A stretch of 43,761 nt of DNA from a virus. This document shows, one piece after another, positions 7,405 through 21,545 of the stretch. Location: positions 1-43,761 of IMG/VR virus record IMGVR_UViG_3300010885_003579; one strand, written 5' to 3'. The position numbers were made by a program, and so were the translations under genes. Below the pieces are notes generated by a model, which had not been told where the DNA came from, made no database searches, and worked only from the letters and a program-made list of their open reading frames with translations. How positions within the stretch are numbered: the stretch's first letter is position 1; the number at the start of each line of letters is the position of its first letter.

Positions 7405-8265
7405 ATGATTCTCGTGGATTTCAGCCAAGTCATGATCTCAAATATCATGATGCAATTGGCTAACAATGACAGCAAGCTCGATGAGGATATGGTTCGCCAT
7501 ATGGTTCTGTCGAGCATTCGCTTATATAAGAAAAAGTTTGGCGCTGAGTATGGTGAGATCGTTATCTGTGCTGACGGTCCGTCATATTGGCGTCGAGAAA
7601 TCTATCCTCACTACAAGGCTGGTCGCAAGAAGGCGCGTGAGAAGTCTGCGCACGATTGGTCATTGATTTTCAATGCTCTCCATAAGATCCGTGACGAGCT
7701 AGAAGAGAATATGCCATATCCAGTTCTGCGCTTTGATCGTGCAGAAGCTGACGATATCATCGGCGCTCTCTGTCATGCTTATGGTCAGCATGGTATTGTG
7801 ACCGAGAAGATCCTAATTGTATCTGGCGACAAAGACTTTGCGCAGTTGCAGAAGTATGACAACGTTGCTCAGTTCTCTCCTATCGGCAAGAAGTTTATTA
7901 CGCCTGACGTAAACCCAGAGCGGTTCAAGCAGTATCATATTCTGCAAGGCGATAGCGGCGATGGTGTTCCTAACTTCTTGTCTGCCGACGATACGTTTGT
8001 TTCTGGTAGTCGACAGAAGCCTCTGCCCAAGAAGAAGCTAGAAGAGTGGACGTTGCTAGAACCTGAAGCATATTGTCAAGGTGAGATGCTGCGTAACTAT
8101 CATCGTAACAAGATGATGGTTGATCTTGATTGTATTCCTGAAGAACTTCAGAAACAGATCGTCGAAGCGTATGCTACATACAAGTATAATCCTCGCAATA
8201 AAATCTTCACTTATTTCATCGAACATCGTCTGCGTCAGCTGACGGAAGCCATCTCGGAGTTTTGA
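7405..8265 (+). CDS. rnh: T4-type RNase H (5'-3' flap/RNA primer exonuclease)
   Basis: This 286-residue protein matches the FEN-1/T4 RNase H family, which removes RNA primers from lagging-strand fragments. Acidic metal-site blocks are in the expected order: LVDFSQ at the start, CADGPSYWRREIYPHYKAGR near residue 52, RAEADDIIGAL near 112, VSGDKDFAQLQ near 139, and GDSGDGVPNF in the helix-hairpin-helix region near 177. T4 RNase H is about 305 residues, so the length fits. It is the first gene after the promoter at 7353 with GGAG upstream. Confidence 0.92.
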   Translation: MILVDFSQVMISNIMMQLANNDSKLDEDMVRHMVLSSIRLYKKKFGAEYGEIVICADGPSYWRREIYPHYKAGRKKAREKSAHDWSLIFNALHKIRDELEENMPYPVLRFDRAEADDIIGALCHAYGQHGIVTEKILIVSGDKDFAQLQKYDNVAQFSPIGKKFITPDVNPERFKQYHILQGDSGDGVPNFLSADDTFVSGSRQKPLPKKKLEEWTLLEPEAYCQGEMLRNYHRNKMMVDLDCIPEELQKQIVEAYATYKYNPRNKIFTYFIEHRLRQLTEAISEF

Positions 8266-8266
8266 T

Positions 8267-8458
8267 ATGACACCAATTCAATGTCTGCAACTTATCCTAA
8301 CCTTAGTCGTGACTGGTGCTTGCACTGCTGTCTTTGGTATTGTGTTTCGAAGTGAGATTGCTTCTAAGAAATGGCTTATGTGGACTGGTCGTTCGCTAAT
8401 GGTGTTTCATTTCCTCGCACTTCCCGTAGTTATGATCCTTTTGATCTGGAGTATCTAA
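8267..8458 (+). CDS. small membrane protein
   Basis: A 63-residue protein with two hydrophobic segments, about residues 8-26 and 44-62, joined by a basic loop (RSEIASKKW). It begins immediately after rnh and its stop overlaps the next start (TAATG), so translation is coupled. It is likely an inner-membrane protein of unknown role. Confidence 0.7.
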   Translation: MTPIQCLQLILTLVVTGACTAVFGIVFRSEIASKKWLMWTGRSLMVFHFLALPVVMILLIWSI

Positions 8459-17367: not shown

Positions 17368-18138
17368 ATGCAGACTGCAATCATAGACGAAGCATTTCTT
17401 GAAGCCGAAGCATCGAAGTATTTGACGAGAAAAGAACGAAAACAAAAGAAGAGAGCGAAGGGAACAGGTTTCCGACAACCTGTGGTTCCTAGCTTGTGTC
17501 GTGTGTCCCCTAGAACAGCAGCTCAACGATTGGTTGTTGACGCATTCAATTCAGACAAGAATCTAATCCTTCATGGTTGCGCTGGAACTGGTAAGACGTT
17601 CCTCGCTCTGTGGCTTTCAATGAACGCTATACTTACTGGTGATTCACCTAAGCCAATCGTGATTCTACGCAGCGTTGTTCCTACTCGCGATATCGGGTTC
17701 CTTCCTGGCAATGCGAAAGACAAAGCTGCGGTCTATGAAGCACCTTATCAGGGAATCATCTCTGAGATCAGTGATAAGTCATATGACTGGATGAAGATGA
17801 ATGGTTACATCCAATTTGATGTCACATCATTCCTTCGTGGTATGACTTTCCGCGATAACATTATCATCATCGACGAGTGTCAGAATCTGTCGGATCATGA
17901 AATCCATACGGTCATGACTCGCGTTGGTGAAGGTTGTCGCGTTATCTTCTGTGGTGACTTTACTCAGAAGGACTATACTCGTGAAGGGTCTGGTATGAAC
18001 AATCTGCTCAGGATTGCAGGTGAGATGCGTTCTTTCGAAATCGTCAAGTTTCATAAGGAAGATGTCGTTCGTTCGGGCTTTGTGAAAGAATATATAATTA
18101 CACGCACAGAGCTTGAAGAACGAGGTATGATTAGTTGA
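17368..18138 (+). CDS. phoH: PhoH-like ATPase
   Basis: A 256-residue protein with Walker A LHGCAGTGKTFLA near residue 66 and Walker B NIIIIDECQNLS near 164, plus VILRSVVPTRDIGFLPG and VIFCGDFTQKD. These are the blocks of the PhoH family of P-loop ATPases, frequent in marine and other T4-like phages and possibly linked to RNA metabolism. The ATG at 17368 has GGAG upstream; an ATG at 17335 is less likely. The spacer holds an isolated strong ribosome site at 17297-17305. Confidence 0.9.
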   Translation: MQTAIIDEAFLEAEASKYLTRKERKQKKRAKGTGFRQPVVPSLCRVSPRTAAQRLVVDAFNSDKNLILHGCAGTGKTFLALWLSMNAILTGDSPKPIVILRSVVPTRDIGFLPGNAKDKAAVYEAPYQGIISEISDKSYDWMKMNGYIQFDVTSFLRGMTFRDNIIIIDECQNLSDHEIHTVMTRVGEGCRVIFCGDFTQKDYTREGSGMNNLLRIAGEMRSFEIVKFHKEDVVRSGFVKEYIITRTELEERGMIS

Positions 18139-18830
18139 AATTTGACCATTCGCCATATATTGATTTACCTAGAGCAAAACAAATCAATACACCAAACGGT
18201 AGACGTTATCAAACTCCAGATGGTAACGTCTACCCATCTATCACGACACTACTCGGCGATCAGCCTGAAAAGAAAAAGTCTCTCGCTGAGTGGCGCGCTC
18301 GTGTCGGTGAAGAAGAAGCTAACAAGATTAGCAGACAAGCAGCAAGCCGTGGAACTGATCTTCACAATCTAATGGAATCATACATTCTAGGAGATGAGAT
18401 TGACGCAAAGAAAATCATGCCCTCGACGCTCGCACGTTTTCGTATTGTTCAGAAATGTATTGATAAAAACCTACAACTTGTTTATGCGTCTGAAACACCG
18501 ATGTTCTCAGACATCCTCCGAATCGCAGGGACAGCAGACCTGATCTGCGAGTGGGACGGTAAAGTAACGGTGATCGACTTCAAGACTTCTCGTAAGAGAA
18601 AAACTCGTGAAATGATCACCGATTACTTCCTTCAGGTTACAGCATACTCTATCATGTTCGAAGAGCACACTGGCATCGAATGCCATGACTTTGCCATTCT
18701 CATCGTATCGGATGACGGCGAGTTCGATTGCTTCGAAGGCAAGCGCAACGATTATGTCCGCCAGCTGATTCGTGTAAGAGATCAGTATGAGTGGAGAAAA
18801 AGTCTTGACATTCAGCGTCAAACAGCTTAG
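18135..18830 (+). CDS. PD-(D/E)XK superfamily exonuclease
   Basis: A 231-residue protein from a TTG start overlapping the PhoH stop. The nuclease core is visible: RGTDLHNLMESYI (helix with the Glu), AGTADLICEWDGKVTVIDFK near residues 131-150 (the D...D-x-K catalytic strand), and YFLQVTAYSIMF (the QxxxY element). This fits the Cas4/RecB-like exonucleases of T4-like cyanophages. It probably processes DNA ends in replication or recombination. A composite promoter lies at its 3' end. Confidence 0.82.
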   Translation: MKFDHSPYIDLPRAKQINTPNGRRYQTPDGNVYPSITTLLGDQPEKKKSLAEWRARVGEEEANKISRQAASRGTDLHNLMESYILGDEIDAKKIMPSTLARFRIVQKCIDKNLQLVYASETPMFSDILRIAGTADLICEWDGKVTVIDFKTSRKRKTREMITDYFLQVTAYSIMFEEHTGIECHDFAILIVSDDGEFDCFEGKRNDYVRQLIRVRDQYEWRKSLDIQRQTA

Positions 18831-18838
18831 TATAAATA
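18805..18838 (+). promoter_or_regulatory. overlapping sigma-70-like and T4-type late promoter upstream of tmRNA
   Basis: TTGACA (18805-18810), a 17-bp spacer and TAGTAT (18828-18833, 4 of 6 bases) overlap TATAAATA (18831-18838), the T4 late promoter core. The tmRNA begins right after it. Confidence 0.7.
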
Positions 18839-18843
18839 ACATG

Positions 18844-19141
18844 CTAAGGTCGTTGAGGCGTATGGAATAGACGATTCGGACGCGGGGGCAGTTCCCGCCA
18901 CCTCCACCATAAGCAGAGGAACAGGACGCTGGCTCTTTGAAGTGGGATAACGGGTTGATCGCCGTGAATACATGGAGAGTCCTCTGTTTATGATGGGGGT
19001 GATTTAGGTTCGACGGGTTGTAGTAAAGACACGAAGAGACCAAAAGCAACGTTTAGATGCAAACGATAACGCACTCATCGAGACTCGCCTAGCGGCGTAA
19101 TCTCTTGGGTATGAGCTCCACCTAGAAACAGAACGGGCTCA
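18844..19141 (+). ncRNA. ssrA: circularly permuted two-piece tmRNA
   Basis: tmRNA rescues stalled ribosomes and tags the peptide for proteolysis. The upstream acceptor piece ends GGACGCGGG, then TTCCCGCCACCTCCACCA (CCA at 18907-18909). The downstream coding piece starts GGGGGTGATTTAGGTTCGAC (from 18995). GGGGGTG pairs with CACCTCC as the acceptor stem, including one G-U. The tag frame at 19059-19100 encodes ANDNALIETRLAA and a TAA stop. The 85-nt intervening segment folds by 18908-18920 with 18980-18992 (13 bp) into a helix that extends the acceptor stem, as expected for a processed permuted tmRNA. The T-loop reads GGCAGTT rather than TTCRANY. Outer ends are approximate. Confidence 0.9.
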
Positions 19142-19165
19142 CTTTCCTACATTGAGGTATTTACT

Positions 19166-19390
19166 ATGTCCGAAGAAAAGCAAATCCGTCTTTCCGTTCT
19201 TCAAATGGCACAGTCGATGTGCGATGCGGAATATCTCATCGCCGCTGAACGTGGTGGTGAACAGAAACCATTCCCAACTACAGCTGAAGTTATCAAGAAA
19301 GCCGACGAGCTTATGGCGTTTGTCGATGACATTCGCGACCCTACAGTTAAGAACGTGACACAACTCCTTAGCGAACACGCTGGAAAGTAA
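19166..19390 (+). CDS. small hypothetical protein
   Basis: A 74-residue helical acidic protein (MSEEKQIRLSVLQMAQSMCD), with TTGAGG before the ATG. It lies 25 bp after the approximate end of the tmRNA and may share its transcript. It has two helices, one near residues 5-30 and one near 40-70. No known family. Confidence 0.65.
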   Translation: MSEEKQIRLSVLQMAQSMCDAEYLIAAERGGEQKPFPTTAEVIKKADELMAFVDDIRDPTVKNVTQLLSEHAGK

Positions 19391-19395
19391 TTGTT

Positions 19396-19992
19396 ATGAA
19401 AGTCAATATCGGTTCTTATCACGACTACTTTGGTCCCTATCAAATCGCAGAAAAGGTTTTCTTCTGGATCAATCACAGAGAAGTTCTTTTGGGTTTGGAT
19501 GAAACCCTAGAGCATCGCTGGGATGTGAGAGCGTGTGAGAAGTTTGGTGATTGGATGAGCGATAGAGCTTGGTTCGTCAAGTTCTTAAACTGGATTGACT
19601 CCAAGAAGCAGCGCAAGATCCAAGTTCGCATCGATCCGTGGGATACTTGGTCGATGGATCATACCCTCGCACTTATCATTCATCCTATGCTTGTTCAGCT
19701 GAAAGCAGCTAATCATGGATACTTCAGCTCTGACCCTGATGATGCACCACAAATTGGTAAAGGCAAGGAAACAGATTATGGCGGTAATGATACTCTTGCT
19801 CTTGATCGTTATAACTGGATCATGGACGAAATGATCTGGACGTTTGACGAGCTGAAGAGCGACAGAGATCATGAACTCTTCTATAACGAAGAAACTGGTC
19901 AGTATAACTTCGAAGGTCAAAAAGAACACGACGAGCGTATGCAAAATGGTCTTCGTTTGTTCGGTAAGTATTTTCGCGCACTTTGGGATTGA
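19396..19992 (+). CDS. conserved phage protein of unknown function
   Basis: A 198-residue protein with many Trp, Asp and His residues. Blocks VNIGSYHDYFGPYQIAEKVF, VRIDPWDTWSMDHTLALIIH and LDRYNWIMDEMIWTFDEL recur in T4-like phage proteins. It ends with a helix rich in Glu and Arg. The starting codon follows the previous gene by 5 bp. The role is unknown. Confidence 0.75.
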   Translation: MKVNIGSYHDYFGPYQIAEKVFFWINHREVLLGLDETLEHRWDVRACEKFGDWMSDRAWFVKFLNWIDSKKQRKIQVRIDPWDTWSMDHTLALIIHPMLVQLKAANHGYFSSDPDDAPQIGKGKETDYGGNDTLALDRYNWIMDEMIWTFDELKSDRDHELFYNEETGQYNFEGQKEHDERMQNGLRLFGKYFRALWD

Positions 19993-19994
19993 GC

Positions 19995-20813
19995 ATGAGA
20001 TTCTATGAATTTTGTGGGAATGATAAACCCCTAAGCATTATCGCTGGTCCTTGCGCGTTTGAATCCAAAGAACACGCAATTATGATGGCTGAATCTCTCA
20101 AAGAGATTTGCGATAAACTAAAAGTCAACTTCATTTATAAGACCTCTTTCGATAAAGCAAATCGAAGTTCCGCAGATAGTAATAGGGGTGGCGGCTTCGA
20201 CGAGGCGTTTTACGGAATGGAGGCCGTCCGTGCTCGAGGAATCGAGGTTCTAACGGACGTTCACGAACCTTGGCATTGTGAACAAGTGCAGGCTGATATC
20301 ATTCAGATTCCTGCGTTCCTTTGCCGACAGACTGATCTTATTCGTGCTGCAGCAGAGAGCGGTAAGCCTGTCAACGTGAAGAAGGGTCAGTTCCTATCAC
20401 CGTGGGAAATGAGGAACGTAGCCGAGAAGCTGCGTAAGTTTGGCTGCGATAAGTATCTGTTTACTGAACGCGGAACGACATTTGGTTACAACAATCTTGT
20501 GGTTGACTTTCGTTCGCTCGAAGTGATGAAGCAATATACAGATCGCGTTGTTATGGATTGCACTCACGCAGTTCAGCTTCCTGGCGGTAATGGAACAAGC
20601 TCTGGTGGTCAGCGCCAGTATGTTTCTACTATGGCTCGCGCTGCTGTTGCGATTGGCGTCTCTGCTCTGTTCATCGAAACTCATCAAGATCCAGACAATG
20701 CACCATCTGATGGTCCAAACATGATTCGTCTTGACAACTTCGAGAATTTAGTATATGATTTACTCATACTTGATTATGACTCTAAGCAAAGGACGAAGCG
20801 AAAATATGGGTAA
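19995..20813 (+). CDS. kdsA: 3-deoxy-8-phosphooctulonate (KDO-8-P) synthase
   Basis: KdsA joins phosphoenolpyruvate and arabinose-5-phosphate to make KDO-8-P, the precursor of KDO in lipopolysaccharide core. The 272-residue protein (E. coli KdsA is 284) shows LSIIAGPCAFES near residues 13-24, YKTSFDKANRSS, VLTDVHEPWHCEQ, IQIPAFLCRQTDLIRAA, NVKKGQFLSPWEM, ERGTTFGYNNLVVD, THAVQLPGGNG and ETHQDPDNAPSDGPNM. Cys20 in GPC is the residue that separates metal-dependent from metal-independent enzymes, so this one is probably metal-dependent. Start 19995 lies 2 bp after the previous gene. Such a gene is unusual in a phage. Confidence 0.92.
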   Translation: MRFYEFCGNDKPLSIIAGPCAFESKEHAIMMAESLKEICDKLKVNFIYKTSFDKANRSSADSNRGGGFDEAFYGMEAVRARGIEVLTDVHEPWHCEQVQADIIQIPAFLCRQTDLIRAAAESGKPVNVKKGQFLSPWEMRNVAEKLRKFGCDKYLFTERGTTFGYNNLVVDFRSLEVMKQYTDRVVMDCTHAVQLPGGNGTSSGGQRQYVSTMARAAVAIGVSALFIETHQDPDNAPSDGPNMIRLDNFENLVYDLLILDYDSKQRTKRKYG

Positions 20814-21309
20814 CATTACTGGCAAGGTTTGGGGTGATACGAGCGTTCTCATTCAGAATTCTAATGTCGAACTTCACAAGATCAACGTAAAGGCGGGATT
20901 ACGCTGTTCGGAGCATAAGCATGAACACAAATGGAACGGATTCTATGTCATCTCAGGAGTGTTGGAAATCCATGTCGCAAAGAATAACTATGATCTCACC
21001 GATGTCACCACTCTTCGAGCAGGTGATTTTACTTCTGTCCGTCCTGGCGAGTTCCATTGGTTCAACTGCATTGAAGACTGTGTTGCACTAGAAGTCTATT
21101 ATCCAGAAGCACTCAGCGAAGATATCGTTCGCCGCAGCGTCGGTGGTAAGAACAATCCGTTCGTTGTGCCAGAACCACAGAAAACTCCTTGCGTCAACAT
21201 CTGTCAGCTCGATGAGTCTGGTGAAAAGTGCATCGGTTGTGACCGCACTCTTGCTGAGATCGCAGATGCTGGTCGTCGTGATGTTCCCTATGAAGGATAT
21301 GACAAATGA
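20806..21309 (+). CDS. cupin fused to a DUF1289 zinc-like domain
   Basis: A 167-residue protein. The first ~105 residues form a cupin barrel: motif 1 GLRCSEHKHEHKWNGFYVISG-like (split across about residues 26-46, His-x-His) and motif 2 PGEFHWFNC. The last ~40 residues carry C-V-N-I-C and C-I-G-C pairs followed by RTLAEIADAGR, which is DUF1289, a small domain usually found alone. The ATG at 20806 overlaps kdsA by 8 bp, so it is co-translated. A sugar-phosphate isomerase or a redox/metal role are possible. Confidence 0.78.
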   Translation: MGNITGKVWGDTSVLIQNSNVELHKINVKAGLRCSEHKHEHKWNGFYVISGVLEIHVAKNNYDLTDVTTLRAGDFTSVRPGEFHWFNCIEDCVALEVYYPEALSEDIVRRSVGGKNNPFVVPEPQKTPCVNICQLDESGEKCIGCDRTLAEIADAGRRDVPYEGYDK

Positions 21310-21545
21310 GTGATGCAGCCGTAGCAAGCATTATGAGTTCCAACACATTTATCTCGATGGTGGAACTCCGTATCAGCGACAAAGGTATGAGCTATCTCGA
21401 AGCGATTACCGATGTCTGTGAAAAGACTGGGCTTGAGTTTGAAAACGTATCCAAGCTCATGACTCCTACTATGCGTAAGCTGCTTCAGTCGGAAGCTGCT
21501 TCACTCAATCTCATCAAGCGCACTGGATCAAGGTTGCCAATCTAA
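21306..21545 (+). CDS. 33: gp33-like late transcription coactivator
   Basis: A 79-residue protein with the pattern SYLEAITDVCEKTGLEFENV, then MTPTMRKLLQSEAASLNLI and RLPI at the C-terminus. This resembles the phage late-transcription coactivator family represented by T4 gp33, which links RNA polymerase to the sliding clamp together with gp55. The presence of TATAAATA late motifs in the window supports such a system. It overlaps its neighbours by 4 and 1 bases. Confidence 0.6.
   Translation: MSDAAVASIMSSNTFISMVELRISDKGMSYLEAITDVCEKTGLEFENVSKLMTPTMRKLLQSEAASLNLIKRTGSRLPI

What the first reader, a model, noticed from the sequence alone, without database searches (positions are those of the whole stretch)
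18844..19141. Phage-borne circularly permuted two-piece tmRNA
An acceptor piece ending in CCA at 18909, an 85-nt intervening segment that folds on the acceptor stem, and a coding piece with an ANDNALIETRLAA tag all lie between phage genes. Bacterial permuted ssrA is known in alphaproteobacteria. A complete copy carried by a T4-like phage, flanked by phage genes and not as an integrated fragment, is unusual. It could keep trans-translation going or retag proteins during infection, or replace host tmRNA. The T-loop GGCAGTT also departs from TTCRANY.
Basis: partly seen in the sequence, partly recalled or inferred. Interest (0 to 1): 0.92.

Follow-up and report, generated by a model that had tools for sequence, protein, structure and literature searches.

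The report
Phage tmRNA with swappable inner segment
A virus of bacteria carries its own intact copy of a ribosome-rescue RNA, as some phages were already known to do, and the piece cut out of the middle of this RNA turns out to be swapped wholesale between related phages, which as far as I could find has not been described.

Summary
Confirmed: window 18848-19143(+) is a complete alphaproteobacterial-type circularly permuted (two-piece) tmRNA (RF04321 95.4 bits, RF01849 91 bits, ARAGORN). It lies in a T4-like phage contig between a PD-(D/E)XK exonuclease and gp33, behind its own sigma-70-like promoter. As a phage-borne permuted tmRNA it is a known kind: phage Melnitz has one at the same PhoH-exonuclease-ssrA-gp33 locus, and 53 two-piece phage tmRNAs were already counted (PMC9004378). 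The 'odd' T-loop is the usual type in this group.

The new part is the 85-nt intervening segment (IVS). Across 108 unique viral tmRNAs it falls into 67 sequence families and is replaced wholesale while mature pieces and flanks stay identical. In two cultured Ruegeria phages the divergent tract starts at the first base after CCA and ends at base 5 of the coding piece, with 609 and 156 identical nt on either side. The same IVS also recurs on strongly diverged tmRNAs, and one family shows clear covariation. Nearly all IVSs are closed by a helix of at least 8 bp. Whether the cassette is a functional RNA or a hypervariable spacer is open.

The parts
18805..18833 (+). Sigma-70-like promoter TTGACA-17-TAGTAT overlapping the end of the exonuclease gene
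   Evidence: same kind of site directly upstream in 51 of 91 distinct viral tmRNAs against 2 of 585 control windows
18848..18909 (+). tmRNA acceptor piece: T-arm GCGGG-GGCAGTT-CCCGC, acceptor 3' strand CACCTCC, A73 and encoded CCA
   Evidence: left end from RF04321
18910..18994 (+). Intervening segment (IVS), 85 nt, family F1; closing helix 18910-18919 with 18981-18990
   Evidence: exchangeable cassette
18995..19143 (+). tmRNA coding piece: GGGGGTG acceptor 5' strand (G3.U70), paired arm, tag frame, 3' tail
   Evidence: right end from RF01849
19059..19100 (+). Tag reading frame GCA...TAA, ANDNALIETRLAA*
18135..18830 (+). PD-(D/E)XK exonuclease directly upstream
   Evidence: phrog_298 3e-66, PF12705
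17335..18138 (+). PhoH-like protein
   Evidence: phrog_170 1.3e-74, PF02562
19166..19390 (+). 74-aa ORF, first gene after the tmRNA
   Evidence: no Pfam or PHROG match; related ORF directly after the tmRNA in 44 of 120 viral loci
21306..21545 (+). gp33 late-transcription coactivator
   Evidence: phrog_254, PF16805

Best explanation
A functional phage-encoded alphaproteobacterial-type permuted tmRNA. It is transcribed by host sigma-70 RNA polymerase from its own promoter. tRNA-processing enzymes (inferred: RNase P before G18995, 3' processing at the encoded CCA) cut out the IVS and leave two pieces held together by base pairing. The tRNA-like end is charged with alanine through G3.U70 and works with host SmpB (no phage SmpB found), adding ANDNALIETRLAA to stalled chains. 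Most likely this keeps ribosome rescue and recycling going during infection (inferred). The IVS is an exchangeable cassette: its ends form a long helix on top of the acceptor stem, and everything between CCA and the coding piece can be replaced in one step by recombination between co-infecting phages, since the mature pieces on both sides are highly conserved. Shown here: identity, permutation, conserved pairing, promoter, synteny, cassette replacement and sharing. Inferred: processing, charging, tagging, the route of exchange, and the benefit to the phage.
For: Two covariance models and ARAGORN. Present downstream of the exonuclease in 32 of 32 related loci. 103 tRNA-like domains: 99.2% paired, 124 compensatory cells versus shuffle mean 24.9 (0/500), G3.U70 and ACCA invariant. 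Promoter 51/91 versus 2/585. IVS replaced with near base precision between cultured isolates DSS3P8 and vB_RpoS-V10 and between metagenomic relatives with identical flanks. Window IVS shared at 94% with L218, whose acceptor piece and arm are 79% and 68% identical.
Against: No RNA or protein data. Host unknown and host ssrA not compared. The window is a 43.8-kb fragment, so a phage smpB elsewhere cannot be excluded for this phage (none in 13 other records). 3' end of the coding piece is a model boundary. Most viral loci were found with patterns that fix CCTCCACCA, so conservation of that part is partly imposed; loci found through the exonuclease are free of this.
Confidence: 0.85

Rival explanations
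1. The IVS interior is neutral filler. Only the closing helix is selected, because it brings the two halves together and presents the acceptor stem for processing; the interior drifts and is swapped passively by recombination in the conserved flanks.
For: 95% of viral IVSs have a closing helix of at least 8 bp, shuffles 1.7%, while interiors are only slightly more structured than shuffles (mean z -0.61). 67 families in 108 tmRNAs suggests few constraints. An HNH gene is tolerated inside. Bacterial IVSs also turn over fast.
Against: F2 has compensatory changes in interior helices and an invariant core; F1 and F2 are more conserved than the tmRNA around them; viral IVSs are about four times longer than bacterial ones (median 82 versus 21 nt).
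Confidence: 0.48
2. The IVS is a functional small RNA released from the precursor, and phages exchange a pool of such RNAs through the tmRNA gene, perhaps in counter-defence.
For: Interior covariation in F2, 4 interior double-changed pairs, 0/500 shuffles for pairing and covariation score. Same cassette on very different tmRNAs. Two cassettes in tandem separated by an acceptor-like minihelix in L226/L231. F1 and F2 hits only in the IVS position.
Against: No expression data, no Rfam match, no universal fold, weak interior structure on average, F1 has little variation to test. The pattern used to find F2 fixed much of its core.
Confidence: 0.28
3. IVS turnover is driven by homing endonucleases or other cutting within the tmRNA gene, with repair from a co-infecting phage replacing the segment.
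For: L090 carries an HNH homing endonuclease exactly in the IVS. Replaced tracts end at or within a few bases of the conserved pieces. Displaced copies of the tmRNA 3' tail in L016, L030 and L039.
Against: One endonuclease in more than 100 IVSs. The high recombination of T4-like phages could do the same without a cut.
Confidence: 0.2
4. The IVS differences are metagenome assembly artefacts at conserved tmRNA pieces.
For: Most loci are short-read metagenome contigs and the mature pieces are shared between co-occurring phages.
Against: The same replacement is seen between two cultured isolates. The window combination recurs in an independent sample with 99.8% identical downstream 3 kb, and many other combinations recur. 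Covariation inside F2 does not depend on assembly. L227 shares almost no sequence with other F2 carriers at the left junction.
Confidence: 0.04
5. A tmRNA relic captured from a host during integration, not functional.
For: tmRNA genes are integration sites for mobile elements (PMC11915505, PMC9004378).
Against: It is complete, has its own promoter, shows compensatory evolution over 103 domains, and is found in 32 of 32 loci with a related exonuclease.
Confidence: 0.03

Closest known systems
Two-piece tmRNA (ssrA) of Methylophilales phage Melnitz (PMC9004378; MZ577097)
   Same: Permuted alphaproteobacterial type, in a T4-like phage, same PhoH - PDDEXK nuclease - ssrA - gp33 - gp59 - gp32 order
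   Different: Window tmRNA follows the exonuclease directly and lies five genes before gp33; different tag (ANDNYVPVDYALAA in Melnitz), different IVS (about 140 nt), and no glutamine riboswitch match in the window
Alphaproteobacterial permuted tmRNA, RF01849 / RF04321 (Caulobacter type)
   Same: Gene order, encoded CCA, G3.U70, tag frame, T-loop type
   Different: Viral IVS longer (median 82 versus 21 nt), closed by a long helix (95% versus 24%), replaced as a cassette; tag not found in 385 genomes of the class
One-piece phage tmRNAs (mycobacteriophage Bxz1 group, Bacillus phage G; tRNA-like domain only in DS6A; PMC4131195)
   Same: Phage-borne ssrA
   Different: From general knowledge these are the standard form, without a permuted IVS; DS6A has only the tRNA-like domain

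Membership tests
Alphaproteobacterial permuted (two-piece) tmRNA | Covariance model score above the curated cut-off | tested here: met
   RF01849 91 versus 50 bits, RF04321 95.4 versus 47 bits
Alphaproteobacterial permuted (two-piece) tmRNA | Permuted order: acceptor 3' strand with CCA upstream of acceptor 5' strand, with an intervening segment | tested here: met
Alphaproteobacterial permuted (two-piece) tmRNA | Alanine identity: G3.U70, A73, CCA | tested here: met
   G18997 pairs with U18903; invariant in 103 viral domains
Alphaproteobacterial permuted (two-piece) tmRNA | Tag frame starting with Ala and ending in a hydrophobic degron | tested here: met
   ANDNALIETRLAA*
Alphaproteobacterial permuted (two-piece) tmRNA | Processing into two pieces, charging, tagging in the cell | not testable with these tools
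   needs RNA-seq, charging assay and proteomics
Alphaproteobacterial permuted (two-piece) tmRNA | SmpB partner | tested here: inconclusive
   none in the window or 13 other phage records; host SmpB presumed, host unknown
Melnitz-type phage ssrA locus | PhoH - nuclease - ssrA - gp33 synteny | tested here: met
Melnitz-type phage ssrA locus | Glutamine riboswitch in the ssrA gene | tested here: not met
   no riboswitch match in the window at gathering or around the tmRNA up to E 1; the source paper calls the riboswitch common but not defining
Known Rfam RNA family for the IVS | IVS matches a curated RNA family other than tmRNA | tested here: not met
   No match for the window IVS up to E 1, nor for other IVSs at gathering

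The most novel reading that the evidence does not exclude
The intervening segment of phage permuted tmRNAs is a cassette site. Phages exchange a large pool of small structured RNAs through it; these are expressed as part of the tmRNA precursor and released by tRNA-processing enzymes (even in tandem, separated by an acceptor minihelix, as in L226/L231), and act as separate phage small RNAs, possibly in counter-defence.
Probability: 0.28. Interest if true: 0.88.

Novelty: new variant of a known kind. Interest (0 to 1): 0.62.

Why it matters
The tmRNA itself adds an orthologue to a known set of phage ribosome-rescue RNAs and shows that it is a conserved, syntenic feature of a T4-like lineage rather than a stray capture. 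The IVS result is what changes the picture. A segment regarded as disposable is replaced with near base precision between otherwise identical phages, and individual cassettes spread between diverged tmRNAs while keeping their structure. If the cassettes do something, phage tmRNA genes are a platform for exchanging small RNAs. If they do nothing, they are a clean natural record of recombination in phage RNA genes. Both readings can be tested at once in the cultured Ruegeria phages DSS3P8 and vB_RpoS-V10.

Tried and rejected
T-loop as an anomaly: rejected, it is the usual type in this group. A common kissing-loop fold for all IVSs: rejected, mean z -0.39 against shuffles, although F2 and a few others could form one. 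IVSs as tRNA relics: ARAGORN calls on IVS letters were scattered and inconsistent. IVS as a known Rfam RNA: no match. F1/F2 cassettes in bacteria: none in 385 alphaproteobacterial genomes each, with positive controls on phage records, but stricter filters were in force, so a weak negative. Window IVS family in cultured phages: model R2 gives weak hits exactly on the IVSs of Mesorhizobium phage Cp1R7A-A1 (E 0.002) and DSS3_MAL1 (E 0.028), suggestive only; a DNA scan for the shared motif found nothing. Same tag in hosts: no match for ALIETRLAA in 385 genomes. Phage SmpB: none. The small downstream protein as a tmRNA cofactor: directly after the tmRNA in 44 of 120 loci but no family match, left open.

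Full report
Observation. ARAGORN finds one permuted tmRNA in the window, tag ANDNALIETRLAA. cmscan gives RF04321 (18848-19100, 95.4 bits) and RF01849 (18801-19143, 91 bits), both far above cut-off. The sequence shows the acceptor piece ending in ACCA at 18909, an 85-nt IVS at 18910-18994, the coding piece from 18995 and the tag frame 19059-19100. The region folds with z -4.3.

Context. The window is a 43,761-base IMG/VR virus record, 44% G+C. PHROG and Pfam hits give a T4-like order: ThyX, a transcriptional regulator, PhoH, PD-(D/E)XK exonuclease, tmRNA, a 74-aa ORF, a PHROG of unknown function, a DAHP/KDO8P-type synthase, a cupin/DUF1289 protein, gp33, a possible nucleotidyltransferase, gp59, gp32, then structural genes. 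The nearest cultured relatives by baseplate protein are Pelagibacter phage HTVC008M and Melnitz at about 37% identity. Melnitz has ssrA at the same locus.

Is it functional? All 32 viral loci with a related exonuclease (50-96% protein identity) have a permuted tmRNA downstream, in about half of them at exactly the same spacing (CCTCCACCA starting 73-74 nt after the exonuclease end). A sigma-70-like promoter lies directly upstream in 51 of 91 distinct viral tmRNAs against 2 of 585 control windows; the window's is TTGACA-17-TAGTAT. In 103 distinct tRNA-like domains the acceptor and T-stems are 99.2% paired with 124 compensatory cells (shuffle mean 24.9, 0/500), and G3.U70 and ACCA are invariant. 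The shuffle ignores relatedness of the sequences, so its p-value is not literal. Examples found without the acceptor pattern are L091 (GGGCUGG with CCAGUCC) and L225 (GGGCCGG with CCGGUCC), which keep G3.U70. These facts argue strongly for a charged, used tRNA-like domain. No SmpB is encoded in 14 phage records, so host SmpB is presumably used.

What is ordinary. Phage-borne two-piece tmRNAs are known: PMC9004378 reports Melnitz and counts 53 among phages, 50 from marine or aquatic samples; PMC11915505 lists 79 phage tmRNA sequences. Here Rfam (and mostly ARAGORN too) confirms one in 16 cultured alphaproteobacterial phages (six Caulobacter Bertelyvirus, four roseophages, and Rhodobacter, Erythrobacter, Mesorhizobium and Sinorhizobium phages); it is annotated in one of the 16 stretches fetched. 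The T-loop GGCAGTT is of the common type in the group.

What is new: the IVS. Comparing the window with its nearest relatives showed that the IVS does not follow the backbone. L085-L087 (exonuclease DNA 90-91% identical) have unrelated IVSs, whereas L067, L094 and L100 (72-81%) share the window's IVS at 88-91%. Over 108 unique viral tmRNAs the IVSs form 67 families. Of 71 viral pairs with at least 95% identical mature pieces, 69% have IVS identity below 65%; shuffled IVSs give 52+-6%. Several pairs have near-identical flanks on both sides and unrelated IVSs, for example L014/L079 and L004/L081. Bacterial IVSs also change fast but are much shorter, so the comparison with them is only rough.

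Assembly artefact was the main worry. Two cultured Ruegeria pomeroyi phages from Inner Harbor water, DSS3P8 and vB_RpoS-V10, answer it. Across 16 kb the difference cluster at 8158-8268 (L251 coordinates) begins at the first base after the CCA (8157) and ends at base 5 of the coding piece, with no differences for 609 nt before and 156 nt after. The two IVSs are 66% identical, possibly diverged relatives, but clearly not the same allele. The window's own combination recurs in an independent metagenome, L061, with 99.8% identical downstream 3 kb.

Cassettes also travel. A motif scan of 2.9 million viral contigs for the window family F1 found nine contigs, all in the IVS position; L218 keeps the IVS at 94% while acceptor piece and arm are 79% and 68% identical to the window. 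Family F2 gave 23 contigs, all in the IVS position, on about ten backbones; L227 shares about 97% of the IVS with carriers whose acceptor pieces are 61-65% identical. F2 shows strong covariation: 99.7% of cells paired, 9 double-changed pairs, 4 of them in interior helices, 0/500 shuffles for percentage paired and covariation score. Its GUUGC/GCAAC pseudoknot is invariant, partly because the search pattern fixed it. F1 has one double change, in its closing helix. L226 and L231 hold two cassettes in tandem, separated by GGGGGCGCACUAAGGUGUGUUCCA, which can form an acceptor-like minihelix ending in CCA. L090 has an HNH homing endonuclease in its IVS.

Nature of the cassettes. 95% of 93 viral IVSs have a terminal helix of at least 8 bp (shuffles 1.7%; bacterial IVSs of 25 nt or more 24%), and GAUACA..UGUAUC-UUUGAU ends are common; interiors are only slightly more structured than shuffles (mean z -0.61). 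So a closing helix is a general requirement, and interior structure is demonstrated only for F2. The F1 and F2 models found nothing in 385 alphaproteobacterial genomes each (positive controls 95, 96). A model search gives weak hits exactly on the IVSs of Mesorhizobium phage Cp1R7A-A1 and DSS3_MAL1. No Rfam family matches.

Judgement. The tmRNA is a new member of a known kind. The exchangeable IVS makes it a new variant; I found no description of it in the papers searched, a library that lacks most subscription journals. Best reading: a working phage tmRNA with a recombining IVS. Open question: filler with a required closing helix, or a released functional RNA.

Noticed in passing
window 19166-19390; L030, L084, L100 and others just after the tmRNA: A small protein family (about 70-80 aa) is the first gene after the tmRNA in 44 of 120 viral loci and otherwise often one gene further on, one copy per locus; no Pfam or PHROG match and no hit in cultured phages.
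   Followed up: partly
L016, L030, L039 (about 400-500 nt downstream of the tmRNA): Displaced second copies of the tmRNA 3' tail follow the small gene, as if a tag-plus-tail-plus-gene module had been inserted and left the old tail behind.
   Followed up: partly
L002:2415-3017 (Sinorhizobium phage Phosso, PV764938): Unannotated permuted tmRNA in a 469-kb cultured phage with a 410-nt IVS and tag ANDNVSTKVALAA.
   Followed up: partly
L226 and L231, between acceptor and coding piece: Two IVS cassettes in tandem separated by a 24-nt acceptor-like minihelix ending in CCA.
   Followed up: partly
L090:6828-7262: HNH homing endonuclease gene sits exactly in the IVS of a phage tmRNA.
   Followed up: partly
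viral tmRNA tags, L003-L150: Tags vary widely (about 46 kinds in 103 domains) even between phages with nearly identical neighbours, with ANDN and LAA/VAA ends kept.
   Followed up: partly
L236-L239 (roseophages DSS3P8, V10, MD18, DSS3_MAL1): A GOLLD RNA (RF02032) lies a few hundred bases upstream of the tmRNA in all four.
   Followed up: no
window 19983-20813 and 20755-21309: Phage-borne DAHP/KDO8P-type synthase (PF00793) followed by a cupin protein with a C-terminal DUF1289.
   Followed up: no
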